Assembly: GCF_001999965.1 (NCBI RefSeq)
Contig: NZ_CP019646.1
Location: 3,162,001-3,226,000 of the forward strand
Direction: 5' to 3'
DNA from: Limihaloglobus sulfuriphilus
GTDB taxonomy: Bacteria; Planctomycetota; Phycisphaerae; Sedimentisphaerales; Sedimentisphaeraceae
Length of the DNA stretch: 64,000 nucleotides
Shown piece by piece: positions 890 to 42,819 of the stretch. The position numbers and the translations under genes were made by a program. Within the stretch, counting starts at the first letter, position 1, and each line of letters begins with the position of its first letter. The notes under the pieces were generated by a model that ran no database searches, was not told where the DNA came from, and was given only the letters and a program-made list of their open reading frames with translations.

Positions 890-893
890 AAAT

Positions 894-1304
894 ATGGCTG
901 ACACATTATCACAACAAGATAGATCCAAGTGTATGTCGGCTAATAAAAACAGTAATACAAAACCTGAAATGCTTGTTAGGCGGTTGGTGTTTTCTCTGGG
1001 TTACAGGTACCGTTTACATAACCGGAAGTTGCCGGGGTGTCCGGATCTGGTTTTTGCCGGACACAAAAAAGTCATCTTTGTGAATGGTTGTTACTGGCAT
1101 AGGCACAATTGCAAAAAAGGTAAATCAACACCCCAAACACGCCAAGAGTTTTGGGAAACTAAATTTAAACGAACGGCTGAACGGGATAAAGAAAATATAA
1201 AGCTTTTGGAAAAAAAAGGGTGGAAAGTTTTGGTTATTTGGGAATGCCAGATAAAGAAAGATATTAAAAAGGTGCAAGAAAAAATCGTTAAATTTTTGGG
1301 TTAG
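894..1304 (+). CDS. vsr: Very short patch repair endonuclease Vsr
   Basis: Vsr nicks 5' of the T in T:G mismatches produced by deamination of 5-methylcytosine. The 136 residues match the usual size. Visible landmarks are the N-terminal RSKCMSANK region, PGCPDLVF with the catalytic Asp, VNGCYWHRHNC with the active-site and zinc His/Cys residues, and the VLVIWEC strand near the end. Vsr genes normally travel with a Dcm-like cytosine-C5 methyltransferase; none is in the window, so it should lie to the left. The gene sits 4 bases after the upstream HNH gene and 4 bases before the next one, forming a compact three-gene operon. Confidence 0.93.
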   Translation: MADTLSQQDRSKCMSANKNSNTKPEMLVRRLVFSLGYRYRLHNRKLPGCPDLVFAGHKKVIFVNGCYWHRHNCKKGKSTPQTRQEFWETKFKRTAERDKENIKLLEKKGWKVLVIWECQIKKDIKKVQEKIVKFLG

Positions 1305-1308
1305 CGCC

Positions 1309-11458: not shown

Positions 11459-11579
11459 GTTTCGGTTATAAAAAATTCTAATTTAATCTTTATAACACTT
11501 GTTGCTTTTTTTCTAATTTTGAGTACAATAAGCGCAATATATTGTATTTGTATCTAAATGTACCTAAACAGAGGTGTTT

Positions 11580-12692
11580 ATGAAGATTAAATTTAATCGT
11601 TCAGTACTCCAGGAAGCATTGGGGCTGATAGCGACAGTGGTGCCGCTGAAGACACCAAAACCGATTCTCCGCTGTTTTAAGATCACGGCGGAAAACGATG
11701 CGGTTTTAATAAGCGCGACCGACCTTGAGGTTGGTATAACCTGCAAGATAACCCATGCCCAGGTAGAGGAGCCCGGCAGCGCGGTTCTGCCCGCTGATAA
11801 GGCCAATTCCATTGTCCGTGAGAGCTCGGATGATGTACTGGTTTTCGAGGATTCCAGCGAGGATATGAGCATAAACATCGAAGGCCAGGACAGCCGCTAC
11901 ACTATCTACGGCCACGATATCGATCAGTTTCCTACCGTGCCCAATGACACCGGCGAGACGGCGTTTGATATGAAGCTGGGCGTTCTGCAGATAGCCATCG
12001 AGCAGACTGTGTTTGCCTCGGCCAAGCAGAGCACGCGGTATTCGCTCAACGGGATTCTCTGGGAGCTCGAGGATAAAGTGCTGACAATTGTCGGCTCTGA
12101 CGGAAGGCGTCTGGCAAGGTATCAGACCAGGCTGGATAACGTGTATGAAGCTGCGGGCGAGGAGCAGGTACGGGTTATTGTGCCTACGAAAACTATGGGG
12201 CTGATAGACCGGATCGGCGCTGCCCCGGACGAGGTTGTCTCGGTCGGTTTCAGGAACAACCAGATCGTTCTCAGCTGCGGCGGCGTGGTGATCAGCTCGA
12301 ACCTGGTCGAAGGGCGTTTCCCGCGTTACCAGGATATAATCCCCGACGACTGCGACAAGACGCTCACAGTTGATACAGATGTTCTTCTAAGTGCCGTACG
12401 CAGGGCGTCGCTGCTTGTAAGTGCCGATTCAAAAGGGATTAAGGTTACTTTAGACGATGGTATAATGATTATTTCCGGCCGCTCTCCCGAGACTGGAGAT
12501 GCCCAGATCAACCTGCCGGTAGATTATACAGATGACCAGCTGGTCATCGGCTTTAACCCGCAGTACCTTATCGATGTTCTTCGGGTAGCGGATCAGGACC
12601 AGGTAACCCTGGAGTTTAAAACCTCCGACAGGCCCGGTGTGGTCAAGCTCGGATCGAAGTATATTTATATCATTATGCCGACAGATATTTAA
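11580..12692 (+). CDS. dnaN: DNA polymerase III sliding clamp (beta)
   Basis: The beta clamp tethers DNA polymerase III to the template. About 370 residues form three clamp domains: N-terminal MKIKFNRSVLQEAL, the middle TRYSLNGILWEL segment (central-domain hallmark) and the C-terminal end IIMPTDI, equivalent to the MPMR(L)-type terminus. I chose ATG 11580 over GTG 11574 because GAGG at 11571-11574 gives a 5-base spacing and homologues start at MK. dnaA, normally just upstream, is missing; instead a PEP-CTERM gene precedes. The next genes are dciA-like and gyrB. Confidence 0.96.
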   Translation: MKIKFNRSVLQEALGLIATVVPLKTPKPILRCFKITAENDAVLISATDLEVGITCKITHAQVEEPGSAVLPADKANSIVRESSDDVLVFEDSSEDMSINIEGQDSRYTIYGHDIDQFPTVPNDTGETAFDMKLGVLQIAIEQTVFASAKQSTRYSLNGILWELEDKVLTIVGSDGRRLARYQTRLDNVYEAAGEEQVRVIVPTKTMGLIDRIGAAPDEVVSVGFRNNQIVLSCGGVVISSNLVEGRFPRYQDIIPDDCDKTLTVDTDVLLSAVRRASLLVSADSKGIKVTLDDGIMIISGRSPETGDAQINLPVDYTDDQLVIGFNPQYLIDVLRVADQDQVTLEFKTSDRPGVVKLGSKYIYIIMPTDI

Positions 12693-19024: not shown

Positions 19025-20977
19025 TTAAAGATTTAATTTCTTAATATCTACAATTGGTTTGCCGTCAGATTGATTCAATGTTTGTATAAAACGGGTTTTA
19101 CGTTTATGTACCCTTCTCAACTCATCTATATAGCTTTCCCATTGGGTCTGCTTTTTCATACGTTTCATGAGGGATTCTGCCTTTTTGAGGTAAACCATTG
19201 ACTGTTCATAAGCTTGGGGTTTAGTTTCATTAATAAGCTGCTCAGCAATATTTTGCCAGATTGACACAGAACGCTCGGGAGCTATTGTTTGAATAGCTTT
19301 TGCTATCTTATCGTCCCAGGTATTGAACCGGGTTTTCCCTTTTCGGTGTTTTTCGTACCAATACAACACTTTTTCGGGATTTTTCTCAAATATGTATATG
19401 TCTATAATCTCGTTTATTTTAGGATAAGTATTCAGGTATGATGATTTAGGTTCAACTTTACTTGATTTATCAAGGGGCCAAACTTTTTGCTTCCACGGCA
19501 ACTGGCCTTTTTGAAGATATTCTATCAGATGAGCACGTACTTGCGTCCACGTTTTATTTTTAGTATTAGCCTTTTGGCATTCTATGTAGTTTTTAGTGGA
19601 TGGAGAACGAACAAATTCTTCTGCCTGCATCATTGCAATCGCTTTCCAGTCTTTCTGTTTTGCTTTTATGTCTTTGAGCATTGATCTCAATTGAGATTCG
19701 ATGCCGGCCCAGCTTCCGGCTAATCCTTGAATCCCTTTATGTATCCAGGCTTCTGCCTGTGAGTAACGTTTGGCTGAAAGAAGCCTTTCAACAAGACGCA
19801 CATAACTATTGGTTATTGGGGCTTCCTGTTCGCACAGTGGTATTATTTCATCTTTTCTATCACTCTGCTCAAGAGAATGTACAATCCAGTTTGTTACTCG
19901 ATCACGCATATATTTTGAATGAAAGTCATTTTTACTGTCTTGAGTTTTCATCGCAGCAAGACGTTTGAACATTCGATCTGCAAAGATGCTCCAATCAGCT
20001 TTTGTATGTTTCTTCGTAAGATATTCTTCAAAAACTCCAAAAGTACCGTATTCGTCCTTTAAAATAACTTCAACAGCCCATTCTAAACGTTCGATTCCTG
20101 ATAGTGGAGACCGATTCAGCGCCTTAACTATTGCCGGCATGCACTCTGCTATTTCAATTGAGGTCTCACCTTCGTCATTACTCTGGGCGATTTGTTCGTT
20201 TCCGAGTTCTATTAATTCCCGTCCGAGAGACAATACTTCATCTGGATAACCAGATGACAATAGAAATTCCAGTTTCCCGCAGACATCAGAGTAGTCCGGG
20301 GTGTACCCTTCGTCGTCCCAACGGTTCTGCCAACCCGGCTCGCTTGCTATATAGCGAATATCTTTTCTTACATTATTCACAAGTGATTTTATGTTACCTG
20401 ATGAGAGCAAATTTTGATCTTCAAGTTCCTTTGAAACATTTGAATATTTTTTTGCCAGATCAAGGATGAGTTCAATTATCTCCGATTTGGATTTCTTCTC
20501 CAAAAAAGATGAAATAGTCTCCTTGTTCTCACTTGGAGATATAGCTTTCCGGTCGGTAATATTACCGGACAAAATCAAAAGGCGTTTATCATCTTTGGAA
20601 ACCCGGGGGATTTGTCTTCCATTTTGTATCAGTCGCAGGTACTCCAGTAGAGTGGCCACGCCATGTTTACAATTTGCATGATATGGGCACGTACAGATTG
20701 AGCTTGGTAGATTTTGGGGGCCGATAGTGACTTTAGTGGCATACCTCTTACTCCCCTCAACCCACGAGAGCAAGTCTCCGTTTTCAAGAACAGATAAATC
20801 CGTAACCAGGCCCTGCTGCTGATAGCTCTGGCCGCGTCTTACAATACTGTTGCCCGCCCATCTTTTGAGATCATTCCAGCAAAGGCTTATGAATTTGTCA
20901 ATAATCTGCTTTTCTATAATTATTCCAATCGAAAGTGATGCCAATACAAATGTTAACCAAATACTAATAAGTGGCAA
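19025..20977 (-). CDS. SWIM zinc-finger protein
   Basis: A 650-residue protein whose N-terminal part holds a SWIM zinc finger (CTCPYHANCKH, about residues 93-103; pattern CxC...CxH). A long helical repeat-like region follows, with Trp-containing segments such as KRYSQAEAWIHKG and EKVLYWYEKHRKG. The family resemblance starts at WNDLKRWAG (about residue 34). No ATG or GTG precedes it in frame, only TTG codons after a TAA, so the true start is uncertain. SWIM proteins are linked to nucleic-acid binding and recombination; the role here is unknown. AT-rich, like the UroD-like neighbour. Confidence 0.75.
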   Translation of the reverse strand: MPLISIWLTFVLASLSIGIIIEKQIIDKFISLCWNDLKRWAGNSIVRRGQSYQQQGLVTDLSVLENGDLLSWVEGSKRYATKVTIGPQNLPSSICTCPYHANCKHGVATLLEYLRLIQNGRQIPRVSKDDKRLLILSGNITDRKAISPSENKETISSFLEKKSKSEIIELILDLAKKYSNVSKELEDQNLLSSGNIKSLVNNVRKDIRYIASEPGWQNRWDDEGYTPDYSDVCGKLEFLLSSGYPDEVLSLGRELIELGNEQIAQSNDEGETSIEIAECMPAIVKALNRSPLSGIERLEWAVEVILKDEYGTFGVFEEYLTKKHTKADWSIFADRMFKRLAAMKTQDSKNDFHSKYMRDRVTNWIVHSLEQSDRKDEIIPLCEQEAPITNSYVRLVERLLSAKRYSQAEAWIHKGIQGLAGSWAGIESQLRSMLKDIKAKQKDWKAIAMMQAEEFVRSPSTKNYIECQKANTKNKTWTQVRAHLIEYLQKGQLPWKQKVWPLDKSSKVEPKSSYLNTYPKINEIIDIYIFEKNPEKVLYWYEKHRKGKTRFNTWDDKIAKAIQTIAPERSVSIWQNIAEQLINETKPQAYEQSMVYLKKAESLMKRMKKQTQWESYIDELRRVHKRKTRFIQTLNQSDGKPIVDIKKLNL

Positions 20978-25479: not shown

Positions 25480-26517
25480 CTATTGGTGAAAATGATGTAA
25501 TCCCAACTTTTCGGCGATCCTGTCAAACTCATCAAGCGAGTAGTAATCTATAAGTATTCTGCCCTTTTTGCCGGCACCAGTGGTCTTTATTTGAACCTTT
25601 GTCTGGAGCAGACTTGCCAGACGTTTTTCAAGGTCAAGTATTGCCGGCGCTTTGGCAGGTTTGGATTGTTTCTCAGTGTTGTCCTGTCCGCTGAGCATTT
25701 TTTTGACTACCCGCTCAACCTCTCTGACGGAGAGCCTGTCGGCAAACGCCCTGTTTGCCAGCCTGTTCCTAAGCTCGTTTCCGGGCAGTGCCAGTATTGC
25801 TCTTGCGTGCCCCATACTCAGCGAGCCGTCTGAAAGCATTTCTTTGACAGTTGATGGCAGCTCAAGCAGCCGGACGTGATTTGCCAGTGTAGCACGATTT
25901 TCGCCGAGTTTTTCCGCCGCTTCTGTCTGGGTCATGTGGAACTGGTCTATGTAGTCCTTATAGGCCTGCGCCCTTTCAATGCAGTTTAGATTGCTTCGGT
26001 GGATATTCTCTACCAGTGCGATCTCGTGCATCTGTTCTTCGGTAGCCTGGCGAATAATTGCCTTTATTTCGGTCATTTCAGCGATTTTAGCCGCCCTCCA
26101 GCGTCTTTCGCCGGCGATAAGCTGGTATTCAGTGTCTTTGCGGCGGACAATGATAGGCTGAAGAAGCCCGTTTACCTTTATAGATTCCACCAGCTCGGAG
26201 AGTTCTTCCTCGTTCCAAACCCTGCGGGGCTGATAGGGATTTGGCTGAATCTTATCTATTGGTACCATTGATATTGACTCTGCGGCCTCACTTTGCACGG
26301 ATTTTTCTACCGCAGGGGCAGGCTGCGACAGGGGTATCTGCTGTGTTTGAGCGGGGGCAGGCGCGTTTACTGTGCCTAAAAGCGATTGCAGGCCCCTGCC
26401 GAGATGTTTTTGCTTTGGACGCGGTTTCTTTGCCGGCGCGGGTTGTTTTGCCTTAGCGGCAGGTTTCTTCTTTGCAGCAGTCTTCTTTTTTACGGTGGTT
26501 TTCTTTTCTTTAGCCAT
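25480..26517 (-). CDS. parB: Chromosome partitioning protein ParB
   Basis: The ParB CTPase loads on parS and spreads to form the segregation complex. 345 residues: a Lys/Ala/Pro-rich N-terminal tail, LGRGLQSLLG (short ParA-contact motif), the N-terminal CTP-binding domain with IQPNPYQPR, ELVESIKVNGLLQPI and GERRWRAAK, and a helix-turn-helix with TEAAEKLGENRATLANHVRLLELP followed by LSMGHARAIL. A C-terminal dimer domain ends it. parA is not adjacent, unlike in most genomes. Two perfect parS sites lie 78-201 bases upstream of the start and may autoregulate it. Confidence 0.96.
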   Translation of the reverse strand: MAKEKKTTVKKKTAAKKKPAAKAKQPAPAKKPRPKQKHLGRGLQSLLGTVNAPAPAQTQQIPLSQPAPAVEKSVQSEAAESISMVPIDKIQPNPYQPRRVWNEEELSELVESIKVNGLLQPIIVRRKDTEYQLIAGERRWRAAKIAEMTEIKAIIRQATEEQMHEIALVENIHRSNLNCIERAQAYKDYIDQFHMTQTEAAEKLGENRATLANHVRLLELPSTVKEMLSDGSLSMGHARAILALPGNELRNRLANRAFADRLSVREVERVVKKMLSGQDNTEKQSKPAKAPAILDLEKRLASLLQTKVQIKTTGAGKKGRILIDYYSLDEFDRIAEKLGLHHFHQ

Positions 26518-26594
26518 AATTTAACCTCTCTGACATAATGTAACAGGATATAATCTGTTTCTAAATATAGCACAATTTATTTCAATGTCCAGTA

Positions 26595-26610
26595 TGTTCC
26601 ACGTGGAACA
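26595..26610. promoter_or_regulatory. parS site 1
   Basis: TGTTCCACGTGGAACA, a perfect 16-bp palindrome equal to a well-known chromosomal parS sequence, 78 bases upstream of parB. Confidence 0.95.
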
Positions 26611-26663
26611 TGAAAATTGTGAATTAAGAATTAACGGCGGGGCGGTTGGTGATATTGTTTTGG

Positions 26664-26822
26664 TGTGGATAAGGTGTGTGCCTGTGAGTGCTGGAACCCT
26701 GGTGTTCCACGTGGAACAAAGAGGTTATGCACATGTTATCAAGAAATTTAGGTTATATATGCACAATTATTGTAAATTATGAAGTATATTTTGTTGTTAT
26801 CCTGTGGGCAGGTGGTGGATAA
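26664..26822. promoter_or_regulatory. Cluster of DnaA-box-like sites
   Basis: TGTGGATAA at 26664-26672 (exact complement of TTATCCACA); TTATGCACA at 26725-26733 (fits TTATNCACA); ATATGCACA at 26757-26765 (one mismatch); GGTGGATAA at 26814-26822 (one mismatch). They surround an AT-rich stretch and are interleaved with parS site 2. Confidence 0.65.
26703..26718. promoter_or_regulatory. parS site 2
   Basis: TGTTCCACGTGGAACA again, 108 bases from site 1 and seven bases before a TTATGCACA DnaA-like box. Confidence 0.95.
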
Positions 26823-27072
26823 AATAAGGGAAAAGAAAAAAAGCAAAAGAGCAAAGGTGGTAAGTTTGTTCAGCTCATGGCATTGAATGTTTTTAGAAAT
26901 GATTGATGAACCCAATAGGCTGCGAGGTGCCAGATGAACAAGATTTTAATTCAATTATATTAAATCCTGTAAATCTTGTTAATCCTGTCTAATAATTCCT
27001 GATTCTTAAGTATAAACTTTACGTTTGGCAAATGCGGTTTGACTTTTGCGGCAGTGCGGTTATCATGTGCGA

Positions 27073-28242
27073 ATGAAATTATCAGATAAATCAAGAATAC
27101 TCGTGACCTGTCAGATGGGCCTTGGCTGCCTGCTCGAAGAAGAAATGAAAGAGCTGGGCTATACGCCTCTGAAAGTCCGGGATACGGGCGTGGAAATCGA
27201 GGGCAACTTTTTTGACGCGATGGATCTTAACCTGCGGCTGCGGTGCGGGTATGCGGTTTTGTACCTGCTCAAGGCATTTGAATGCAGAGACGCAGAGGAG
27301 CTTTATACCCAGGTTTATTCTCAGCCGTGGGAAAATATAATTCCTGCAAATGAGTATCTTTCTATTATTTCCAGGGTCGATAATCCCACGATTAACAATT
27401 CGATGTTCCCCAATCTGAAAGTAAAAGATGCTATTGCTGACCGGCTTACAAACAAACTCGGCAGCAGATGCGATTCGGGTTCCGGCAGGGAAAATATCGT
27501 TGTAAATCTATACTGGAAAGGTACTAACGCATGGCTGTACATTAACACCACGGGCCGCAAATTATCGGAAAGGGGCTACCGCAAGATGCCGCACCTGGCT
27601 CCTATGCAGGAAACACTCGTCGCGGCGTGCCTGCGTGCCGCGGATTATACGTCCGATAATCCTATCGTATGCCCCATGTGCGGCTCCGGCACTTTTGCCA
27701 TAGAGGCAGCCCTTATCGCACTCAACAGATGCCCGGGACTCTTGCGGAGCAACTTTGCTTTTATGCACCTGCAAAATTTCGAGTCGCAGCTCTGGCAGGA
27801 GATGCGGGCAGAGGCAAGAGACGAGGCGGACAACAATAAACGTCCGATAATAATCGCCTCCGATATAGACCCCAAAGCAATAGAAGCGGCAAAGAAAAAC
27901 GCCCTGACCGCCGGCGTGGAGCATTTAATAAAATTTGAAGTATGCGATTTTGCCGATACCACTATACCAGATGAGCCCGGAATGATTATCATGAACCCCG
28001 AATACGGCAAACGCCTCGGCGATACCCGAGAGCTCGAGGATATTTACGCTCGAATCGGCGATTTCTTTAAGCAGAAATGCACAGGCTGGACAGGGTATAT
28101 CTTCACCGGCAATATGGATTTAGCCAAAAAAGTGGGGTTGCGGACTTCGCGGCGGTTCCCTTTCTATAATGCAGACATAGAATGCCGCCTGCTCAAGTAT
28201 GAAATGTATCAGGGCTCACGCAAAAGCAAATATAATCAATAG
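27073..28242 (+). CDS. THUMP-domain class I RNA methyltransferase (RlmL-like)
   Basis: About 389 residues. The N-terminal THUMP-containing part (VTCQMGLGCLLEEEM opening) is followed by a Rossmann methyltransferase: motif I CPMCGSGTFAIEAAL, then ASDIDPKAIEAAKKNA, and a catalytic motif IV that reads NPEYGKRLGD instead of the usual NPPYG. RlmL relatives make m2G in 23S rRNA. I prefer ATG 27073 (MKLSDKSRILVTC) over TTG 27046, since homology starts there; no clear ribosome-binding site is seen. It is the first rightward gene after the candidate origin. Confidence 0.88.
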   Translation: MKLSDKSRILVTCQMGLGCLLEEEMKELGYTPLKVRDTGVEIEGNFFDAMDLNLRLRCGYAVLYLLKAFECRDAEELYTQVYSQPWENIIPANEYLSIISRVDNPTINNSMFPNLKVKDAIADRLTNKLGSRCDSGSGRENIVVNLYWKGTNAWLYINTTGRKLSERGYRKMPHLAPMQETLVAACLRAADYTSDNPIVCPMCGSGTFAIEAALIALNRCPGLLRSNFAFMHLQNFESQLWQEMRAEARDEADNNKRPIIIASDIDPKAIEAAKKNALTAGVEHLIKFEVCDFADTTIPDEPGMIIMNPEYGKRLGDTRELEDIYARIGDFFKQKCTGWTGYIFTGNMDLAKKVGLRTSRRFPFYNADIECRLLKYEMYQGSRKSKYNQ

Positions 28243-30789: not shown

Positions 30790-33700
30790 GTGGCTAGTTT
30801 ACGTTTTTCCAGCAGAATGCGCTTTAGCAGATTGACGCTTATTTCGCTTGCAATTATCGGTACAATTATTTGCGGAAATCCTGCCGACGCGTTTTCTCAA
30901 ACCAATGAAGCAACAAAAAAAGCACTTCAGGATCAGATTGCCGTTGCCCGGCTTGCCTGTGAAGAGGGCATGCTCGAATCTTCTCAAGGCGTACTTGACA
31001 AGATAAGAAAAGATTTCGGCCAGGATCTGACAGACCAGGACGAGGCGGCTATCAGCGGTATCGAGGATTGTCTGGCCGCCGGCCGCAAGCTCAGGGCAGA
31101 CGCCCAGGCTTCGCTCGGCACCGCCCGGCAACTATACGATAACGGAAATTACGTAGATGCGTACAAACTTTCCTCCCAGCTGGCTGAGAACAAGTTTCTC
31201 CCTGTCGATGACAAGATGGCGGCTGCGAAGATAAAGTCTGCCTCGTATAAGGGTTATACCGAGTATCAGCAGGAAATGAAAGACCTCTTCGACAAAAGCA
31301 TCGAAGACTACAAGGCCGGTAATTACGAAACAGCCTTAAAGGGTTTCGAGACTGTCGATGAGAGCGGCGTAGAAGTTAGCCACTGGTTCAAAGATGCCGG
31401 CGATTACGCAGAGATGACTCAGGCACAAATGACAAAGTCTCAGGCAGAAGCCCAGGCCGATGCAGCTAAGCAGGCTAAAGCTGAAAAAGCTGCCGAAGAA
31501 AAAAAGGCCGCCGCGGAGAAAGCCGCAGCAGAAAAACAGGAAAAAGCTGCCAAAACGCAGCAGCCTGAAGTTGCCGTTGCTGTCCAAAACAACACGGCAG
31601 ACGAATCAGCTCAGGTGCAGCCTGACCAGAACCCCGACCAGGTATCAAACGAATCGATGGAGTCAGCGGCACCCCCAGCCGGCGGCTCTTCTTATATAGA
31701 TCAGATACAGCGGACGAGAAATGTGAAGCGCCAGTACACACAGGTTGTTGTAAATGACGCTATCGCAAAAGCTAATGAATTCATGGCACAGGGCGACTAC
31801 GCCGCGGCACGTGAATCACTTACCGCTGCCTATTCAAATATCAACAAGACCAAGATGGTTCTCGGCGAGCAGCTTTATGAGCAGTACAACACTCAGCTCA
31901 ACTCTATGCGAGATGAGATCGCGGACAAGGCCGAGGCCGCCGCGGTAAAAGATGCCCAGATGCGCCGCGAGGAGCAAAGCGTTCTTCAAAGCGAGATGCG
32001 CCAGAAGATGGAGCGTGAACGTCGGGCCGCGGTAGAGGAATACAAGTCAAACGCCCTTGAATTCCATAAAAAACAGCGTTACGAAGAGGCTCTTGCCCAG
32101 GTCAACGCCCTGCTGGCAATCGATCCGCTCAACGATTTCGGCCTTGCGATGAAGATGTCTCTTGAAGATACAATTTCATGGCGTGAGCAGAGCATGGTAC
32201 AGAAAACCAAGTACGAGCAGGAGATAAAGACCCTCATAGAAGCCGACCGTTCATCAATCCCCTGGTCAGACGATGTGCATTACCCGTCAAACTGGCTGGA
32301 AATCTCTAAGAAACGCGACGCCTTATTTACAGACGGCGAAAATCCCGAAGATGCCGCGATCAATAAACAGCTTGAAACGGTGATTGATCTGATGGAAATC
32401 ACTCAGGACACATCTTTTGAGGACGCTATAGAAATTATAAAGACATCTGTCGAACCGAATTTCAACATCGTTGTACTCTGGCGTGACCTCGAAGATAACG
32501 CGTTCATTGACCGCGACACGCCGGTTAATGTAACATTCAGCTCGCCGGTAAGTGCCAGCATGGCATTGAAGCTGCTTTTGGAAAGTGTATCCGGCGGATT
32601 TGCTGAGCTTGATTACGTTGTTAAAAACGGAATTATCCAGGTCGCGACAGTAGAATCACTTCCGGACAGGCTTCAGGTTGTCCGTTATGAAGTAGCCGAC
32701 CTGCTCGGTGAGAGGGCACTGTTCCAGTTTGAGATGGACACCTCGGACCTGGGTAACCAGGGAGGAGGCCGTTCAAGCGGCGGCGGCGGCGGTGGCAGCA
32801 GCAGCCGAAGAAGCTCATCCTCCAGTCAGGACGACGAAGACATCGACAGGACCGAGATGATCGAACGCTCGGCACTGCGTGTGCAGGAGCTGATGGACCT
32901 GATTCAGCAGAGTATTGACCCTATGAGCTGGTATGATGCCGGCGGACAGGCGACAATCTCCACATTCAATGACAAGACACTGGTTATAAGCCAGACTATC
33001 AAAAACCACAGCGAAGTGAGAAGACTCCTTAACGACCTTCGCGCCTCGCTCGGCCAGCAGGTTGCTCTGGAGACCAGATTCCTTATAGTAAGCCAGAACT
33101 TCCTTGAGGAAATCGGTGTAGATGTTGATTTTATAGTCAATGCCGGCGGAAAATGGGGTGATATCATCGTTGACCAGAACCACGCTTCAACTACCGGCGG
33201 CGGCCAGTCCACCGGCGTTCCCGGCAACCTCGCGGACAACTCCGCGGCGGCAATGATCAGCGGCGGTTACGGCTCTATACTTGATGACCTTCAGGTTCAA
33301 TTCCTGATAAACGCCACCCAGTCCCACCGTGATACAAAGAGTCTCAACGCTCCGCGTGTTGCAGTGCTCAGCGGTGAGTCGGCGGCTATCAGGGTAACAA
33401 CCGATAAATCCTACGTGGCAGACTACGATTTTGAAGATGTAACCACTGCTAACAGCGATTTTAACCGTGTTATCGCCGACCCTGAGATCAGCACGATTCA
33501 GGACGGTGTGATACTTAACGTTACCCCGACGATATCCATGGACAAGAAGTATGTCCTTCTGCGTATCACAACTTCTTTCACAACAACGAGTTTCAGCCAG
33601 TTTGAAGTACCTTCCGGCGGCGAGACAAACGATTATTTCCCGATTCAGCTGCCCGAGTCTGAAATCGCAGAGGTTCGTACCCGTGTCAGCGTGCCTGATT

Positions 33701-33918
33701 CAGGTACACTGCTTATCGGCGGCCAGAAGCTCACCGGTGAAGTTGAGCTGCAGAGCGGCGTGCCGGTTCTGAGCAAGGTTCCCGGGCTGGGAAGGCTCTT
33801 TGAAAACAGGGCCAAGACCAAAGATACATACGTTCTGCTGATACTGGTCAAGCCGACAATTCTGCTTCAGGATGAACTTGAGGCGGAGGCTGTAGCAGGT
33901 ATGCAGACAAATTACTGA
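30790..33918 (+). CDS. Secretin (type II/IV pilus secretion outer-membrane channel)
   Basis: An outer-membrane channel protein, 1042 residues, GTG start behind GGAGG. Signal peptide to about residue 35. Then TPR-like helices, an Ala/Lys/Glu-rich segment (about 215-255), a second helical region, N-domain-like beta-alpha units (FNIVVLWRDLED...), a Gly/Ser-rich loop (about 655-680), and the secretin domain from about 753. That domain has VALETRFLIVSQNFLEEIGV, LNAPRVAVLSGESA and the hallmark VPVLSKVPGLGRLFENR. The long N-terminal TPR fusion is typical of planctomycetal secretins. No GspE/F or Pil genes are adjacent. The following gene encodes a huge exoprotein. Confidence 0.9.
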   Translation: MASLRFSSRMRFSRLTLISLAIIGTIICGNPADAFSQTNEATKKALQDQIAVARLACEEGMLESSQGVLDKIRKDFGQDLTDQDEAAISGIEDCLAAGRKLRADAQASLGTARQLYDNGNYVDAYKLSSQLAENKFLPVDDKMAAAKIKSASYKGYTEYQQEMKDLFDKSIEDYKAGNYETALKGFETVDESGVEVSHWFKDAGDYAEMTQAQMTKSQAEAQADAAKQAKAEKAAEEKKAAAEKAAAEKQEKAAKTQQPEVAVAVQNNTADESAQVQPDQNPDQVSNESMESAAPPAGGSSYIDQIQRTRNVKRQYTQVVVNDAIAKANEFMAQGDYAAARESLTAAYSNINKTKMVLGEQLYEQYNTQLNSMRDEIADKAEAAAVKDAQMRREEQSVLQSEMRQKMERERRAAVEEYKSNALEFHKKQRYEEALAQVNALLAIDPLNDFGLAMKMSLEDTISWREQSMVQKTKYEQEIKTLIEADRSSIPWSDDVHYPSNWLEISKKRDALFTDGENPEDAAINKQLETVIDLMEITQDTSFEDAIEIIKTSVEPNFNIVVLWRDLEDNAFIDRDTPVNVTFSSPVSASMALKLLLESVSGGFAELDYVVKNGIIQVATVESLPDRLQVVRYEVADLLGERALFQFEMDTSDLGNQGGGRSSGGGGGGSSSRRSSSSSQDDEDIDRTEMIERSALRVQELMDLIQQSIDPMSWYDAGGQATISTFNDKTLVISQTIKNHSEVRRLLNDLRASLGQQVALETRFLIVSQNFLEEIGVDVDFIVNAGGKWGDIIVDQNHASTTGGGQSTGVPGNLADNSAAAMISGGYGSILDDLQVQFLINATQSHRDTKSLNAPRVAVLSGESAAIRVTTDKSYVADYDFEDVTTANSDFNRVIADPEISTIQDGVILNVTPTISMDKKYVLLRITTSFTTTSFSQFEVPSGGETNDYFPIQLPESEIAEVRTRVSVPDSGTLLIGGQKLTGEVELQSGVPVLSKVPGLGRLFENRAKTKDTYVLLILVKPTILLQDELEAEAVAGMQTNY

Positions 33919-33949
33919 TCCAATTTTAAACAATTTAATATAACAACGG

Positions 33950-33979
33950 GTACAGGGCGTGAATTTTTTCGCCCTGTAC
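33950..33979. terminator. Hairpin downstream of the secretin gene
   Basis: GTACAGGGCG (33950-33959) pairs with CGCCCTGTAC (33970-33979) around a T-rich loop. There is no T tract after it, so it is a possible but not classical terminator. A TTGACA at 34018-34023 could serve the next gene, but no good -10 box is in place. Confidence 0.45.
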
Positions 33980-34179
33980 TCGTATAAACAGATTCAGGCG
34001 GGTGAGGCAGATGTTTATTGACAGAAAATAATAAACTTACATGCAAACCCGTGTCGCGGCGGCTTCGTATAAACAAAATTGCCGTCAAAGCTAAATAACA
34101 CAGGCTTAATAAGATATTGAAATTATCTAAATATATATTAGAAGATATTAAAGCAATTATTCCAGGAGAAATAACAGTT

Positions 34180-37100
34180 ATGCGTTTATTCAAGTATTTT
34201 TCTCTGCTACTGCTAACGGCGGCATGTCTCCAGGCAAAGGTTCTTCAGGTTCCAACAACTCTTTATCCCGATATCCCCGACGCGGTAGCCGCGGCGGCAC
34301 CCGGCGATACTATCCTGATATCACCCAAGGGCGACGGCTCGGATTACGGCCCTTATGCGATTTCTCTGGGCGATGTTAGCCTGCCTGATGTGGCAGCACG
34401 CGAGAATGCGCCCGTGGTTACTATGTATGATGGACTTTCCGGTATTCTTATTGACAAGAACCTTACGATAGAGGGCCTGGGTGAAGTTGTTATAGATTGC
34501 GGCGAAATGGGCCGCGCTTTCACCATCGACGGCTCGGCTGCAGGCGGAATAACTGTAAACATTACAAATATTAAGATTCAAAACACCAGCTATGCCCCGG
34601 TACATGAGTGGATTGATGAGGAGGGCGAAATCCTCGGCCAGAGCTTTATCGCACAGCCAATGTCTGATGGCACCCCTATATTTGTCGCCGGTCAGCTGAT
34701 AGAGGGAGTTGACCCCGACACCGGCGAAGGTACAGGTGAGTTTACCTATGAGCTTTATGAAGTAGATTCATTCCCGGTTCCAGACCCTGATACCGGTGAC
34801 GTTGATTTCGAGGCAGGCTGCGCCTACGGCGGTGCCATAGGTATAAACTCTGCGGAAGTGCACATCAGCGACTGTGAATTTGACAATTGTGAAGTTACCG
34901 GCGCCCGCGGTTCACAGGGTATTATGGGCAGTTATTATGACATGGAAAATGACAGGGTTGCACTTCGTGATGCCGACGGCAACGGATTTGACGGCGGCGA
35001 AGGCGGAAATGCTTTCGGCGACGGCTACGGCGGAGCTATCGGCTGTCAGAACGGCTCATGGCTGTTCGTTGACAATACCATCTTTTCAAACTGTGCCGCG
35101 GTTGGAGCCATCGGCGGCGACGGCGGCCCCGGCAGTAACGCCGCAGGCAACGCAGATGACGGCTGGAACGGCAACGCCAGCAACGGCGGTGACGCCGGCA
35201 ATCCCACAGGTGCAGGTAACGGCGGAGCTGTGTATCTTGACCCGACCAGTCAGTCAGAATTTACCTCAAGTGAGCTTTTCGCCAACGAATGCCAGTTAGG
35301 CCAACCCGGCACAGGCGGGGCAACCGGCGGCGGTGATGTCAGCGAGGATAATCCGGTTTTCCCCGGCTCCAGCGGCAGCGGATTTGTCTTTTATTACAGA
35401 TGCTACGGCGGAGCGTTCTTCGCGGACAGTGAAATTGATGAGGGCGGGATGCTGTTAAACGCCGCGTGGCCCAGCTTCGTTGATACGCAGTTCAAAGCCA
35501 ACGAATCTCCATATTACGGCGGTGCGATCTACGCGGGCCATTATGTAGAGCTTGTAATAAGCCAATCTGACCCTTCAATAGCGACATTTGACAATAATAC
35601 CGCCAGACAGGGCGGTGCGATCTTCCTGCACGGCGAAAACGTTCTGGATGTAAGTGACTGTTATTTCAGCTCTAACAATGCCAATAGCGGTTATGGCGGT
35701 GCTGTATATAGCGGTGATCCAAGCACTGGTGATGATAACATAACAGCGACATTCAACCGGACAACATTCTCCCGAAACGGCGCGTTGTTCGGCGGTGCTG
35801 TATTTACAAATATGGCAGCCTCAGTTGATTACACACAGTGTGTCTTCAGCTCGAACACGGCTCTTAGTGTATCAGCCGTTGACCCGACACAAACAACCTC
35901 CCACGGCGGTGCGCTGAATATCAAGGGTAATGTAAACATCAGCGATTGTGTGATGACAAACAACATCGCCGGCGGCGGTAACGGCGGTGCAATCCACGCC
36001 CTGCAATGGAGCGGAACACTGACCAACTGCCTTATAAAAGACAACCAGGCACTTTCCGGCGGCGGTATCTACTCTATGAACTCCGCGGGGCTGTATTTTA
36101 ATAATTGTGATTTCCATACCAACTTCGCTAACGCTGTCGCCGGGCAGGGCGGAGGTATGGCTATATTCGACAGCAGCGATGACGGCTCCGGAGGCGATAC
36201 GACAGTATCGATACGCCACAGTGAGTTTACAGCAAACACAGGTTCCGGCAACGGCTCCAAAGGCGGCGGCCTCTATATTTCCACCTGCGACAACGTTGAG
36301 ATTTTCAACACGCTTGTAAACAACAACACAGCCGGACTCCACGGCGGAGGAATAGGCCTGACCTATGTTACAGCGACTTTGGGCAATCTAACCATTGATG
36401 GAAACGAATTGAGCAAAATTTCACAGCTCCCCCTCAATGGCGGCGCCTCTACTTCGGCAAATGACGATGACGACAGCGGCAGCGGGCTCTACATAGAATA
36501 TCTCTGTGATGTTCAGCTGCAAAACAGTATTGTTTCAAATAATGCGGGCATAAGCGTTTACCTTTATGACGCGGACAGCTCGTTCTATTCAAATAATAAC
36601 ATGTATTACATGTATCCTGTCGGTGAATACGAAGGATATGTTTACGACGCCATCAGCCTGCTCAAGACTGACGACGAGATAGACTCTCTGCCCGGCAGCG
36701 GCGGCAACTTAACTGACAATCCCAGGTTTACTTCCGGGCCGCTGGGGTATTATTACCTCTCGTCAAACAGCAGGGCGATAGATGCAGGTAATGACACTTT
36801 CATAAATGTATTCGGTGCCGACGCTCCGACTTACGAAGGTGATGAGGAAATTGTTGATCTTGGATATCACTATCCGGCTGAGGGCTCTGTTCCTCAGTAC
36901 ACGCTGACTATCAATCAGGTTGAAAATGCGATCATTACTCCTGTGCCGAATAAACCCACTTATTTCTCCGGCGAGCTTGTAGAGTTAAATGTAACTCTCG
37001 AGACGGGCTGGCGCGTACGTAACTGGCTCGGTACAATCAACGATACTTCAAACCGCAAGACCAACTATGTCCTGATGAACACGGACAAAACGGTTTCTGT

Positions 37101-40100
37101 TGTTATTGAGAGACCGGTTATCAGGCACGTACCAGCGGAATACCCCGTTTTCAGGGCCGCACTAAAGGCATCTGATGACTATGATATTATCATGGTCGCA
37201 CAGGGTACCCATTATATCGAAGAACGGTATGTAATTGACAGAGAATTAGTTATAACATCTACCAATCCGGACAACCCGGAGGTGGTAGCCGGTACGGTTT
37301 TCGTTCCCAACCAGCCCCAAGGTACAACTCGCCGCGGTGCGTTTGATTTCTACAACGTAAGCCGGGACACTGTTTTCCAGGGCTTTACTGTTCGAAACTT
37401 CCAGTTTTACGGTACAACTCCTGACCACAGAACAAGTGATGTTGACGGTGAGGATGGCGGCGACGGCAGCGGCGCGGCAGGCGGAGCGTTTACCATGCAG
37501 TTGGCATCACCTCAGGTGAAAAATACAGTATTTGAAAATTGCGGCGTCACAGGCGGCGACGGCCAGAACGGCGAATCAGGTATTGAAGAACACCCAAACG
37601 GCGGTGAAGGCGGCTGGGCCGGCCCGGCATACGGCGGGGCGGTATTTATGTACGCTAACTGCTCGCCGCGTTTTGAGAACTGCTCTTTTGCAGACTGTTA
37701 TGTGCAAGGCGGCAACGGCGGCAACGGCGGAGCAGGCTGGGTCAGCAACGGCCGACGCGTCGGCGCAGGCGGACTTGGCGGCAGCTGGGGAGATTATGAC
37801 GATTACGGGTACCCTGACGATATGGACCACGACGTTGGCGCCAGATGGGAAAATCAGCCTTCCGGTATTTATTTTGCTCCCAACAGCTGGTACGAAAACC
37901 CTGAAATGTATAACTGGCGTGACCGTGCCGGCAAGGGCGGAGCTGTGTTTATCAGCAACGGCAGCAACCCTGAATTCGACAACTGTACTTTTGAAAATAA
38001 TAACGCAACAAGTGGTTTGACAGGAGTTACCGCACTGGGGCCTGGAGACAGCCAGGCACGCCCGACACAGGCTTACCGGATAGAGGCCTTTGGCGGAGCT
38101 GTTTACGCGGAAACCAACTCCAAACCGAGTTTCATTGAATGTCAGTTCGATAACAATACAACAAATAAAGATTTCCCCGAAGGCAACTACCATGAGTATG
38201 TCAGCCGCGGCGGCGCATTGTATTTCGAGGACGGCTGTGTTCCGCTGATGGACGGCTGTGTCCTCTCGGGCAATGATTCATGTCTCGGCGGCGGTGTTTA
38301 TACTGAGGACAGCGAGCTTGTGCTGATTGACAGCAGTTTCGTCAATAATACAGCATACATCGGCGGCGGCCTGGTGAACAGCCGCGGCGCGACAGATATA
38401 TTCTGGAGCTCTTTCGACAGCAATCACGCTATGTTTGATCCGCCCTCGGCCCAAACTGGAGATGACGACGAAGTGACAGAAGATTCCGACCTGTTCGCAG
38501 GCAACGGCGGCTCCGGCGGCGGCATCTACAACTGGGAAGCTGATATGGAGGTTATCGGCACGCAGCTTCTCGGTAATGAGGCCGGTGCTTCTGGAGGAGG
38601 CTTCTTCTCCGGCGGCGGCGGTTCACCAATACTGCAGAACGTCCTTGTTGCCAGAAACAATGCCGGCAGCAGCGGCGGCGGATTATCGCTTAATCATAAT
38701 ACAACAGCTCAGATGTTTAATCTGACCGTTGCGGACAACTCGGTAACTTCTACCGTTTACGAAGACTACTACGGCGGCGGTTTGTATCTGGGTTATGAAT
38801 CGACCGCTGATGTAAAGGATAGTATATTCTGGGGCAACCAGGCCTCTACGCAGTACGGACAGCAGATAGCTGTAGGGCTGAGCAATGAATTTATTGTCAG
38901 TCCGTCAATCCTGACTATCAGCAATTCGATAGTAGAAGCCGGTCAGGGCGGTGTTTATACGGACATCGGCGACCCTGTCAGCTCCGGGGATGATTCAATT
39001 CTCATCTGGGATGAGGCGACGATGCTGCCCTCGGCGGCGGTTCCAAACGCTCAGCCGCTGTTTACCTCCGGAGAGCTTGGAGACTATTACCTATCCCGCG
39101 ACGGTATGCAGTACGAGGATTATCCCGTACAGACCGGCACAAGCCCCGCGATCGATATCGGCAGCAGAGGCTTCTTTGATGCCGAACTGTACCGCTACTC
39201 AAACAGAACAGATCACCTGCTTGATACCAATGTTGTTGACGCAGGATTCTATTACACGATTGAAACCGATATTAAAGGTGATATCAACTACGACGGGCTT
39301 CTTAGTCTCTCGGATATTCTGGAATTATCACGCTTGTGGCTTGAAGAGGGCTGCGTTTCACCGCTGTGGTGTTATGACCGTGATGTAAACCAGGACGGCT
39401 ATGTCGATTACTTTGACTGGGTGACAGTCGCCGCTTCTATCGGCGGCAGTGACACAGAGGCGCCGATGCCCAACCCGATGGCGTGGATACAGCCTCCGTT
39501 CTCGCTTGGCGGCGATGCCGTCGAGATGGAATGTGTAGAAGCTCTTGATAACGCTACCGCGGTTGAGTACTACTTCGAGTGTGTAAACGCACCGGAGTTC
39601 AGCAGCGGCTGGGTAGAAGAAACTGTATATACAGTTACCGGCCTGCCGCTCGGTGAGATTATGAGTTTCCGTGTTCGCGCACGTGATTTCAACGGCAACG
39701 AGACGGCAAACTCGACAGTGGCATACCTGACAGTAGGTGCCGACCGGACACCGCCGACACCAAACCCGCTGACCTGGCTGCTTGAGCCGGTTTCCAGCTC
39801 CGCGACAAGCGTGATGATGACAACCGTCGAGGCTCGCGATTCCAGCGGTTATGTTGAATACCAGTTTGAATGTCTCGAAGAGCCTGATTTCAACAGCTCT
39901 TGGATACAGGTAAACAGCTACCAGTTCACAGAGCTGGAAGAAGGCCAGACTTATACATTCCGCGCCCGCGCACGCGATGCGTTCGGCAATGTTACAAACT
40001 ATACCAGCGAGGTAACGGTAATCGCCGGCGGCGATCCGGACAACGGCATACCGGCAGACGGAGCTCCTCCGATGCCCAACCCGCTGAACTGGCTATACGA

Positions 40101-42819
40101 TTCATTTATCAGCACGGATTCTTACGCGACTATCGTATCAGAGCTTGCATCTGATTTGAGCGGCTCGGTTGAATATTTCTTCGACTGCAAAGTTGATGAA
40201 GACGCTACTACCGGCTTAAGCCCGCATGACAGCGGCTGGATCGCCAGCAACGTCTTTACGCCGACAACTCTCGAAGAGGGCATGATATACAGCTACGTTG
40301 TACGTGCCCGTGACGCGTTCGGTAATGAGACACTGGATTCAGAGCTTGCCTACATATCGATAGGCGGCGACTCGGAAGCACCAACTCCTAACCCGCCGCT
40401 GTGGTCACTGGAGCCGGTTTCAGCTTCGGTATCATCAATTGTGATGAGCGCCGAAGAAGGCTACGACCCCAGCAACGTGCTCTACTTCTTTGAGTGCATG
40501 ACCGATTCAACGCTTGACAGCGGCTGGCAGCAAAACCGTTCCTATGCGGTCAACGGACTCGGACAGGGCCAGACCTACAGCTTCCGCTTCAAGATGCGAG
40601 ATGCATTCGGTAACGAGACAGAATACTCCAGCGAGAAATTCGCGACTGTCTCCGAAGACTTCGCGCCGCCTCTGCCCACACCGATGGAATGGCTCGAAGA
40701 GCCGTATCTGCTCGGCGAGAACAGGGCGGTTATGAGTGCGGTGTTTGCTACAGACAGCAGCAGTGCGGCACAGTACTACTTCGACTGTGTAGAAGATGAT
40801 GCCTTTGATTCGGGCTGGATATCTTCGAATATTTATTTTGTCAATATACAAAACGATGTTACGCTGACTTTCCGTGTCAAGGCACGCGATCTGAGTGAAA
40901 ACATGAACGAGACCGGCTTCTCAGAGGAAGCATCTGTTACCGGTTCGGCTGATTTCTATCCGCCGGCACCAGATCCTCTTCAGTGGGAGCAGGTTCCGGT
41001 CAGCGGCTCGCCGACATCTGTTCTGATGTCAACAGTCGAGGCGCGTGATTCCAGCGGCGAAGTTGAATACTATTTCGAGTGCGTAACAAACGAAGCTCTC
41101 GATTCGGGCTGGCAGAGCAGCAGGGTTTACTCGGTTGAGGATCTTGTAGAAGGCCAGACCTACGGTTTCCGTGCCCGCGCACGTGACAAGTACGGCAACA
41201 TGACCGCTTACACCAATATCGCTTTTGCTTCTCCGGGGCTTGACGAGCAGGCTCCGCTGCCCAATCCGCTTGGCTGGAGGTATGACCTGTTTGTTCGTAC
41301 CACCGCAAGTGCACTTATCGCGGCGGACTTCGCCTATGATGTCAACGGGCCGGTAGAGTACTACTTCGCATGTGTTGAGGATCCAAATCTCGATTCGGGC
41401 TGGACACTTGACAACCTCTACGAGGTTACAGATATTGATGTAGGCAGCATTTACCACTTTACAGTTGTCGCACGCGATGCACTGGGCAATACCGGCCAGG
41501 TATCAGAAGAGGCGATCGTTGTTATAGGTGATGATGTAACAGCCCCGACACCGGATCCGCTTGAATGGCTTGTTGAGCCGACATCAGCATCGAACAGCTC
41601 GATTGCGATGTCTGTATCAAAGGCAGATGACCCCAGCGGCGTTGAATACTTCTTCGAGTGTATCGATGATGAATCATACGACAGCGGCTGGATAGCAAAT
41701 CCGTTCTATGAAGTACGCGGTCTTGATTCGGGAGATACTCTCTCGTTCCGTGCCCGCGCACGCGACCTGTTCGGCAACATGACTGATTATACCCCGACAG
41801 TTGCCGCGACGGTAACCGGCGATCTGGCGGCACCGATGCCCAACCCGATGGAATGGTTCGAAGAACCGTATCTCCAGAATGACACCACGGTGAGCATGGC
41901 TGCCAAATACGCTCAGGACTCCAGCAGTCTGGTAGAGTACTACTTCGACTGCATCGAGGACGATGCGTTTGATTACGGCTGGATAGATGCTAACGTCTAT
42001 ACCGCTTACGATCTCATACTTGAGAGCAAATACACATTCCGTGTCAAGGCACGCGACGCTTTCGGCAACGAAACAGAGTGGTCTGACGAGGTCTCCGTAA
42101 TAGCAACTGATGATCTTGATCCGCCGCTGCCCGATCCGGCAGAGTGGTTCGAAGATCCAATTGTGGATATGGAAGGTCTGGTATCGATGGAGGCCGGCGA
42201 GGCAACCGACGATAACGGCCCGGTCGAATACCTCTTCGAGTGTGTAAACAATGAGCTCTTCAGCAGTGACTGGCAGAGCGAGACTCTCTATGAGATAGAA
42301 GGCGGGCTTACCGCCGGTATCCAGTATGAGTTCCGCTTCCGCGCCCGCGACAGGTACGGCAACATGACAGACTGGTCAGAGAGCCGTTTTGTAACCTATG
42401 TTATTGATAATGTCCCGCCGACTCCCGGGGAGATAATCTCCGCGGTAGATTCTGAGGGTATTGCTAATGAGTCCGGCAGGTATCATACGATTACCGCAAC
42501 GCTGGGCTCTGATAATAATACCCCGATCTATTACCAGCTGATCTGTGAAGATTTCGGCGGAGAGTATCCGGACGGCTTCAGCTCACCAATACTCCAGGAA
42601 GGCGAAAACTACTTCTACGATGACGGTTATGCTGATATGACGGTTACATTCACAGACGGCGGTGTAACCTTCCGGTTCAAGGTCCGCAGCACAGACCGAC
42701 CGATGCGGCTGTTCTATCACCTTGACACAATTGATGCCGGCGGCAACAGGGTTTCTTCCGAGACCGTTGCCACCCAGGAAGGCACAGTAGTGATTGAGGA
42801 AGGAACCGGCGAGGGCTGA
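34180..42819 (+). CDS. Giant beta-helix / dockerin / Fn3-like exoprotein
   Basis: 2879 residues. ATG 34180 is chosen: AGGAGA precedes it and it opens the signal peptide MRLFKYFSLLLLTAACLQA. Two right-handed beta-helix regions (about 80-900 and 1010-1700) show repeated GGAIY/GGGIY turns and FxxN-type strands, like pectate-lyase or Pmp folds. A dockerin-like pair of calcium loops (DINYDGLLSLSD, DVNQDGYVDYFD; DNA 39271-39430) sits in mid-protein. Ten Fn3-like repeats of ~98 residues and a divergent eleventh follow. There is no PEP-CTERM or LPXTG end. Probably a secreted adhesin or carbohydrate-binding scaffold; its position after the secretin suggests type II export (inference). Confidence 0.85.
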   Translation: MRLFKYFSLLLLTAACLQAKVLQVPTTLYPDIPDAVAAAAPGDTILISPKGDGSDYGPYAISLGDVSLPDVAARENAPVVTMYDGLSGILIDKNLTIEGLGEVVIDCGEMGRAFTIDGSAAGGITVNITNIKIQNTSYAPVHEWIDEEGEILGQSFIAQPMSDGTPIFVAGQLIEGVDPDTGEGTGEFTYELYEVDSFPVPDPDTGDVDFEAGCAYGGAIGINSAEVHISDCEFDNCEVTGARGSQGIMGSYYDMENDRVALRDADGNGFDGGEGGNAFGDGYGGAIGCQNGSWLFVDNTIFSNCAAVGAIGGDGGPGSNAAGNADDGWNGNASNGGDAGNPTGAGNGGAVYLDPTSQSEFTSSELFANECQLGQPGTGGATGGGDVSEDNPVFPGSSGSGFVFYYRCYGGAFFADSEIDEGGMLLNAAWPSFVDTQFKANESPYYGGAIYAGHYVELVISQSDPSIATFDNNTARQGGAIFLHGENVLDVSDCYFSSNNANSGYGGAVYSGDPSTGDDNITATFNRTTFSRNGALFGGAVFTNMAASVDYTQCVFSSNTALSVSAVDPTQTTSHGGALNIKGNVNISDCVMTNNIAGGGNGGAIHALQWSGTLTNCLIKDNQALSGGGIYSMNSAGLYFNNCDFHTNFANAVAGQGGGMAIFDSSDDGSGGDTTVSIRHSEFTANTGSGNGSKGGGLYISTCDNVEIFNTLVNNNTAGLHGGGIGLTYVTATLGNLTIDGNELSKISQLPLNGGASTSANDDDDSGSGLYIEYLCDVQLQNSIVSNNAGISVYLYDADSSFYSNNNMYYMYPVGEYEGYVYDAISLLKTDDEIDSLPGSGGNLTDNPRFTSGPLGYYYLSSNSRAIDAGNDTFINVFGADAPTYEGDEEIVDLGYHYPAEGSVPQYTLTINQVENAIITPVPNKPTYFSGELVELNVTLETGWRVRNWLGTINDTSNRKTNYVLMNTDKTVSVVIERPVIRHVPAEYPVFRAALKASDDYDIIMVAQGTHYIEERYVIDRELVITSTNPDNPEVVAGTVFVPNQPQGTTRRGAFDFYNVSRDTVFQGFTVRNFQFYGTTPDHRTSDVDGEDGGDGSGAAGGAFTMQLASPQVKNTVFENCGVTGGDGQNGESGIEEHPNGGEGGWAGPAYGGAVFMYANCSPRFENCSFADCYVQGGNGGNGGAGWVSNGRRVGAGGLGGSWGDYDDYGYPDDMDHDVGARWENQPSGIYFAPNSWYENPEMYNWRDRAGKGGAVFISNGSNPEFDNCTFENNNATSGLTGVTALGPGDSQARPTQAYRIEAFGGAVYAETNSKPSFIECQFDNNTTNKDFPEGNYHEYVSRGGALYFEDGCVPLMDGCVLSGNDSCLGGGVYTEDSELVLIDSSFVNNTAYIGGGLVNSRGATDIFWSSFDSNHAMFDPPSAQTGDDDEVTEDSDLFAGNGGSGGGIYNWEADMEVIGTQLLGNEAGASGGGFFSGGGGSPILQNVLVARNNAGSSGGGLSLNHNTTAQMFNLTVADNSVTSTVYEDYYGGGLYLGYESTADVKDSIFWGNQASTQYGQQIAVGLSNEFIVSPSILTISNSIVEAGQGGVYTDIGDPVSSGDDSILIWDEATMLPSAAVPNAQPLFTSGELGDYYLSRDGMQYEDYPVQTGTSPAIDIGSRGFFDAELYRYSNRTDHLLDTNVVDAGFYYTIETDIKGDINYDGLLSLSDILELSRLWLEEGCVSPLWCYDRDVNQDGYVDYFDWVTVAASIGGSDTEAPMPNPMAWIQPPFSLGGDAVEMECVEALDNATAVEYYFECVNAPEFSSGWVEETVYTVTGLPLGEIMSFRVRARDFNGNETANSTVAYLTVGADRTPPTPNPLTWLLEPVSSSATSVMMTTVEARDSSGYVEYQFECLEEPDFNSSWIQVNSYQFTELEEGQTYTFRARARDAFGNVTNYTSEVTVIAGGDPDNGIPADGAPPMPNPLNWLYDSFISTDSYATIVSELASDLSGSVEYFFDCKVDEDATTGLSPHDSGWIASNVFTPTTLEEGMIYSYVVRARDAFGNETLDSELAYISIGGDSEAPTPNPPLWSLEPVSASVSSIVMSAEEGYDPSNVLYFFECMTDSTLDSGWQQNRSYAVNGLGQGQTYSFRFKMRDAFGNETEYSSEKFATVSEDFAPPLPTPMEWLEEPYLLGENRAVMSAVFATDSSSAAQYYFDCVEDDAFDSGWISSNIYFVNIQNDVTLTFRVKARDLSENMNETGFSEEASVTGSADFYPPAPDPLQWEQVPVSGSPTSVLMSTVEARDSSGEVEYYFECVTNEALDSGWQSSRVYSVEDLVEGQTYGFRARARDKYGNMTAYTNIAFASPGLDEQAPLPNPLGWRYDLFVRTTASALIAADFAYDVNGPVEYYFACVEDPNLDSGWTLDNLYEVTDIDVGSIYHFTVVARDALGNTGQVSEEAIVVIGDDVTAPTPDPLEWLVEPTSASNSSIAMSVSKADDPSGVEYFFECIDDESYDSGWIANPFYEVRGLDSGDTLSFRARARDLFGNMTDYTPTVAATVTGDLAAPMPNPMEWFEEPYLQNDTTVSMAAKYAQDSSSLVEYYFDCIEDDAFDYGWIDANVYTAYDLILESKYTFRVKARDAFGNETEWSDEVSVIATDDLDPPLPDPAEWFEDPIVDMEGLVSMEAGEATDDNGPVEYLFECVNNELFSSDWQSETLYEIEGGLTAGIQYEFRFRARDRYGNMTDWSESRFVTYVIDNVPPTPGEIISAVDSEGIANESGRYHTITATLGSDNNTPIYYQLICEDFGGEYPDGFSSPILQEGENYFYDDGYADMTVTFTDGGVTFRFKVRSTDRPMRLFYHLDTIDAGGNRVSSETVATQEGTVVIEEGTGEG
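39451..42404 (+). repeat. Ten tandem ~295-base units encoding Fn3-like domains
   Basis: Each unit encodes the same pattern: an APxPNPxxW opening, a VEYYFECV strand, DSGW, and a RVRARDxFGNET ending. The average unit is 295 bases (98 residues). Words such as CGTGCCCGCGCACG recur nearly unchanged at DNA level, suggesting expansion by unequal exchange. Confidence 0.85.

What the first reader, a model, noticed from the sequence alone, without database searches (positions are those of the whole stretch)
26518..27072. Candidate oriC with parS sites interleaved with DnaA boxes
Two perfect parS palindromes (26595, 26703), four DnaA-box-like 9-mers (two matching TTATNCACA fully) within about 160 bases, an AT-rich stretch, divergent flanking genes, and a wide switch of gene direction at this point. 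dnaN-gyrB is 11-15 kb away and dnaA is absent, so an annotator looking for the origin beside dnaA/dnaN would miss it.
Basis: partly seen in the sequence, partly recalled or inferred. Interest (0 to 1): 0.78.

Follow-up and report, generated by a model that had tools for sequence, protein, structure and literature searches.

The report
parB centromere near, not at, oriC
The spot flagged as the chromosome's replication origin is really the centromere-like parS pair in front of the segregation gene parB; the likely origin, recognisable by a layout shared with most relatives, lies about 28.6 kb away, just outside the window.

Summary
The sequence observation holds: two perfect parS palindromes, two full TTATNCACA 9-mers plus two weaker ones, an AT-rich stretch, divergent genes. 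These are the chromosome's only parS sites.

As the exact oriC the site fails. A parS pair upstream of parB recurs in nearly all of 30 order members, but TTATNCACA boxes there occur only in this genome. Most relatives carry a conserved element upstream of dnaN: two inverted DnaA boxes about 124 bp apart, then a DnaA-trio-like run and an AT-rich tract. A profile built without this genome hits it once strongly, at contig 3,159,755-3,160,030 (E 2.6e-15), 2.0 kb left of the window and 28.6 kb from the finding; the finding's site is not listed up to E 10.

Best reading: an ordinary ori-proximal ParB-parS centromere, probably autoregulating parB, with lineage-specific DnaA-box-like sites of unknown use. 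The dnaN-linked oriC layout is the more interesting by-product. No experiment was run.

The parts
26595..26610 (.). parS site 1, perfect palindrome TGTTCCACGTGGAACA
   Evidence: parS pair upstream of parB recurs in relatives
26703..26718 (.). parS site 2, perfect palindrome TGTTCCACGTGGAACA
25480..26517 (-). parB, 345 aa, only ParB_N-domain protein found in the genome; ParB_N, HTH_ParB and ParB_C domains
26664..26672 (-). DnaA-box-like 9-mer TTATCCACA (full match), not shared by relatives at this place
26725..26733 (+). DnaA-box-like 9-mer TTATGCACA (full match), not shared by relatives at this place
26757..26765 (+). weak DnaA-box-like 9-mer ATATGCACA
26814..26822 (-). weak DnaA-box-like 9-mer TTATCCACC
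27046..28242 (+). THUMP/RlmL-type RNA methyltransferase gene, divergent neighbour of parB; ATG start probably 27073. The parB / parS / methyltransferase order is kept in G002 and G004
11574..12692 (+). dnaN; in most relatives the conserved oriC element lies directly upstream of this gene, here it does not (it lies 13.5 kb upstream, outside the window at contig 3,159,755-3,160,030)

Best explanation
26518-27072 is the parB promoter region carrying the chromosome's only parS sites: a centromere-like ParB-loading site close to, but distinct from, the replication origin. Inferred mechanism: ParB loads at the two parS sites, spreads on flanking DNA, and with ParA (and possibly SMC) moves the newly copied origin region; binding so close to its own start probably also represses parB. 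Replication most likely starts at contig 3,159,755-3,160,030 (minus strand; 28.6 kb away, 2.0 kb left of the window): DnaA binds an inverted pair of boxes 126 bp apart, assembles onto a DnaA-trio run (CTATTATTACTA) and opens the adjacent AT-rich tract. Shown here: parS sites, ParB domains, their conservation, the conserved oriC architecture and its unique strong match in this genome. Inferred: all binding, unwinding, segregation and regulation.
For: Only two parS in the genome; parB carries all chromosomal ParB domains and is the only ParB_N protein; a ParA/Soj-like ATPase exists at 3,050,144. Two or more parS-like sites upstream of parB in 28 of 30 order genomes (the other two show one), while exact TTATNCACA boxes there occur only in G000. 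Inverted DnaA boxes 121-126 bp apart upstream of dnaN in most relatives examined; in 350 kb of G000 the only strong pair of that spacing is 3,159,886/3,160,012; both genome-wide copies of GTGGAAAANCTGTT lie there. Profile R1, built from 18 relatives without G000, hits G000 at 3,159,755-3,160,030 with E 2.6e-15; apart from an overlapping reverse-strand match the next site has E 0.0085; the finding's site is absent up to E 10. R1 hits 39 of 40 genomes, 33 of the 39 best hits within 1 kb upstream of dnaN, and 53 of 80 named dnaN loci, best hits 136-472 bp upstream of dnaN. GC skew agrees with an origin in this region and not at the record-start dnaA.
Against: The G000 element is 13.5 kb from dnaN and reversed relative to it, so its context is not the ancestral one. 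Skew cannot separate 3.160 from 3.189 Mb; the local minimum is at 3,118,205 and a codon-position fit over 350 kb preferred a point near 3.32 Mb. In relative G025 the skew change point (424.6 kb) lies 83 kb from the profile hit (508.0 kb), unexplained. The finding's own DnaA-box cluster is denser than expected. No binding, copy-number or replication data.
Confidence: 0.87

Rival explanations
1. One reading: 26518-27072 is the active oriC, with parS sites interleaved, and the 3.160-Mb element is a relic.
For: DnaA-box-like cluster, AT-rich stretch, divergent genes, gene-direction minimum at parB; skew region compatible.
Against: Boxes not conserved where parS is; no conserved inverted pair or DnaA-trio run; not found by the order-wide oriC profile, which finds another site at E 2.6e-15. 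A relic would not be expected to keep boxes, spacing, trio and AT tract together.
Confidence: 0.06
2. The boxes at the parB-parS gap are functional DnaA sites for coupling segregation to initiation: DnaA regulates parB or is titrated there, as an add-on of this lineage.
For: Only close pair of exact TTATNCACA in 1.217 Mb, sitting within 130 bp of both parS sites.
Against: No equivalent boxes in 29 relatives; the pair could be chance (about 0.2 expected in 1.2 Mb). No expression or binding data. Compatible with the best explanation rather than exclusive of it.
Confidence: 0.2
3. oriC is at the record-start dnaA (contig 1), as the record's cut point implies.
For: Second-best DnaA-box cluster in the sampled genome lies upstream of that dnaA (3,868,032).
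Against: Skew stays positive or near zero on both sides of contig position 1; R1 gives only weak matches there (E 0.66 and 7.7). The cluster fits dnaA self-regulation.
Confidence: 0.04

Closest known systems
Chromosomal ParABS (Spo0J/Soj-type) with ori-proximal parS
   Same: Canonical 16-bp parS near the origin, ParB with ParB_N, HTH and dimerisation domains; several parS close to oriC is the usual state (review PMC7022226).
   Different: Both parS sites sit in the parB promoter; the parA-like gene is 137 kb from parB rather than adjacent.
Bacterial oriC with basal unwinding system (DnaA boxes, spacer, DnaA-trios), PMC8287927
   Same: The 3.160-Mb element and its relatives have DnaA boxes, a 3'-GAT-type trio run in the right polarity and an AT-rich tract.
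   Different: Strong boxes form an inverted pair about 124 bp apart with an extended TAACAGGTTATCCACA motif, and the last strong box is about 100 bp from the trios rather than about 13; a strict box-plus-spacer scan found no BUS in either G000 region.
oriC beside the dnaA-dnaN-recF-gyrB cluster
   Same: Element lies directly upstream of dnaN in 33 of 39 genomes.
   Different: In G000 dnaA is absent from the dnaN-gyrB cluster in the window and the two dnaA genes lie elsewhere; whether dnaA is absent beside dnaN in all relatives was not tested.

Membership tests
Bacterial chromosomal oriC (26518-27072) | Cluster of DnaA boxes | tested here: met
   Two full and two weak boxes within 160 bp
Bacterial chromosomal oriC (26518-27072) | DnaA-trio run beside a box | tested here: not met
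   No run of four or more triplets; no box-plus-trio match
Bacterial chromosomal oriC (26518-27072) | Conservation as an origin in relatives | tested here: not met
   No TTATNCACA at this place in 29 relatives; not found by profile R1
Bacterial chromosomal oriC (26518-27072) | Position at GC-skew minimum | tested here: inconclusive
   Within the switch zone; minimum 70 kb away, curve flat
Bacterial chromosomal oriC (26518-27072) | Replication initiates there | not testable with these tools
   Needs copy-number or unwinding assay
Chromosomal ParB-parS centromere (26518-27072) | Canonical 16-bp parS palindrome | tested here: met
   Two perfect sites, the only ones in the genome
Chromosomal ParB-parS centromere (26518-27072) | Chromosomal ParB encoded | tested here: met
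   All three ParB domains, window 25480-26517
Chromosomal ParB-parS centromere (26518-27072) | ParA partner | tested here: inconclusive
   Soj-sized AAA_31 protein at 3,050,144, not adjacent, not tested further
Chromosomal ParB-parS centromere (26518-27072) | ParB binds and spreads from the sites | not testable with these tools
   Needs ChIP
Order-wide dnaN-linked oriC (3,159,755-3,160,030) | Match to profile R1 built without this genome | tested here: met
   E 2.6e-15, unique strong site
Order-wide dnaN-linked oriC (3,159,755-3,160,030) | Inverted DnaA boxes about 124 bp apart, trio run, AT tract | tested here: met
   126 bp spacing, CTATTATTACTA and 10% GC minimum in 50 bp
Order-wide dnaN-linked oriC (3,159,755-3,160,030) | Within 1 kb upstream of dnaN | tested here: not met
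   13.5 kb away and reversed in G000

The most novel reading that the evidence does not exclude
In this lineage the parB-parS gap has gained working DnaA sites, so that DnaA acts directly at the centromere to tie ParB supply or origin segregation to initiation, possibly as a secondary opening site.
Probability: 0.12. Interest if true: 0.6.

Novelty: new member of a known kind. Interest (0 to 1): 0.36.

Why it matters
It corrects a plausible but wrong origin call and shows that parS plus a few DnaA-like boxes is not enough. The by-product, an origin architecture shared by most sampled members of one Planctomycetota order and more weakly by other families of the class, would let origins be placed in many genomes whose records are cut at dnaA. 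My searches of the held paper library turned up no description of it, which is not proof that none exists.

Tried and rejected
GC-skew minimum as judge: too flat here, and the codon-position fit over 350 kb gave an implausible point. Skew in closed relatives G002 and G004: no clear pattern. BLAST of the 3.160-Mb element against relatives gave only short weak matches, which is why a profile was built. The URO-D gene next to the element suggested a hemE-like context, but its relative in G002 is 37 kb from that genome's element.

Full report
Setting. The window is G000 contig 1, 3,162,001-3,226,000, of a closed 3,868,357-bp genome. The record begins at a dnaA gene; a second full-length dnaA lies at 966,513. 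From genome size and neighbours I take it to be a member of the planctomycete order Sedimentisphaerales; this naming is from memory and related record titles, not a test.

The observation. The two parS palindromes are the only ones in the chromosome. The DnaA-box cluster ranks third in 1.217 Mb of sampled sequence from this genome.

Where replication starts, coarse view. Forty 20-kb stretches spread over the genome, plus the window, show mostly negative GC skew before about 3.11 Mb and mostly positive after about 3.24 Mb, changing back near 1.0 Mb. So the origin region is in or near the window and not at contig position 1. Within the switch zone the curve is flat; its minimum, 3,118,205, is not a usable pointer.

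Comparative test of the finding. In 30 genomes of the order (G000 included) the DNA upstream of parB carries parS-like sites: two or more in 28, one seen in G014, whose upstream contig is short, and one in G022. Exact TTATNCACA occurs there only in G000. The parS pair is therefore an old feature and the boxes are not.

A better origin candidate. Scoring TTWTNCACA clusters put 3,159,872 first in 350 kb of G000 and, in G002 and G004, a site 1.3-1.6 kb 3' of parB. Looking upstream of dnaN in relatives showed an inverted box pair at nearly constant spacing, usually 123-124 bp, with extended motifs (TGTGGATAACCTGTTA and its mirror) and, about 100 bp on, a trio-like TACTACTA run and AT-rich tract. 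G000 has this set at 3,159,755-3,160,030, on the minus strand.

Profile test. R1 was built from 18 relatives, G000 excluded. In G000 it gives one strong place, E 2.6e-15; the second listed match (5.2e-9) is the same place on the other strand, and the next is 0.0085 far away. The finding's site is not listed. Because R1 was calibrated roughly, E-values are approximate, but the bit-score gap (57.6 against 16.9) is wide. R1 matches 39 of 40 genomes, 18 of them training genomes; 33 of 39 best hits are within 1 kb upstream of dnaN, the exceptions being G000, G001 (contig break), G002, G004, G014 and G018. Among 80 dnaN loci with public record titles, some probably overlapping the training genomes, 53 have a hit, best hits 136-472 bp upstream of dnaN. 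In a class-wide sample 29 of 61 genomes match, eight of them from the order itself; dnaN was not checked there.

What the finding is. parB with its promoter-proximal parS pair: an ori-proximal ParB-parS centromere. ParB loading, spreading and repression of parB are inferred from known systems (PMC7022226), not shown. The extra boxes may bind DnaA or may be chance.

Loose ends. The G000 element is displaced from dnaN and reversed, implying at least one rearrangement; a methyltransferase, Vsr and HNH genes lie between.

Noticed in passing
contig 280-756 and 966,513-966,995 (L005, L004): Two full-length dnaA genes in this genome, and likewise two in each of G002, G004 and G025; each of those records begins at the same, weaker-scoring type.
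   Followed up: partly
contig 3,868,032 (L099, about 19675-19900): DnaA-box cluster upstream of the record-start dnaA, second best in the sampled genome; suggests dnaA self-regulation.
   Followed up: partly
contig 3,050,144-3,050,674 (-): ParA/Soj-like ATPase gene about 137 kb from parB rather than beside it.
   Followed up: no
window 71-2163 and L084 10273-11983: Likely restriction-modification island between the oriC candidate and dnaN: HTH regulator, C5 cytosine methylase, HNH nucleases, Vsr.
   Followed up: partly
window 6661-7755: Topoisomerase VI subunit A / Spo11-like gene, uncommon in bacteria.
   Followed up: no
window 30790-42819: Secretin-domain protein gene followed by a 2900-aa ORF with beta-helix, fn3 and Ig-like domains.
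   Followed up: no
window 6338, 6485, 7797, 10382, 16560, 16740, 43916: Dispersed TAGAGACG-containing repeats, some forming palindromes such as GAGACGTATGCAATACGTCTC.
   Followed up: no
G025:C1 405,000-511,000: Sharp GC-skew change point at 424.6 kb, 83 kb from the oriC profile hit at 508.0 kb; unexplained.
   Followed up: partly
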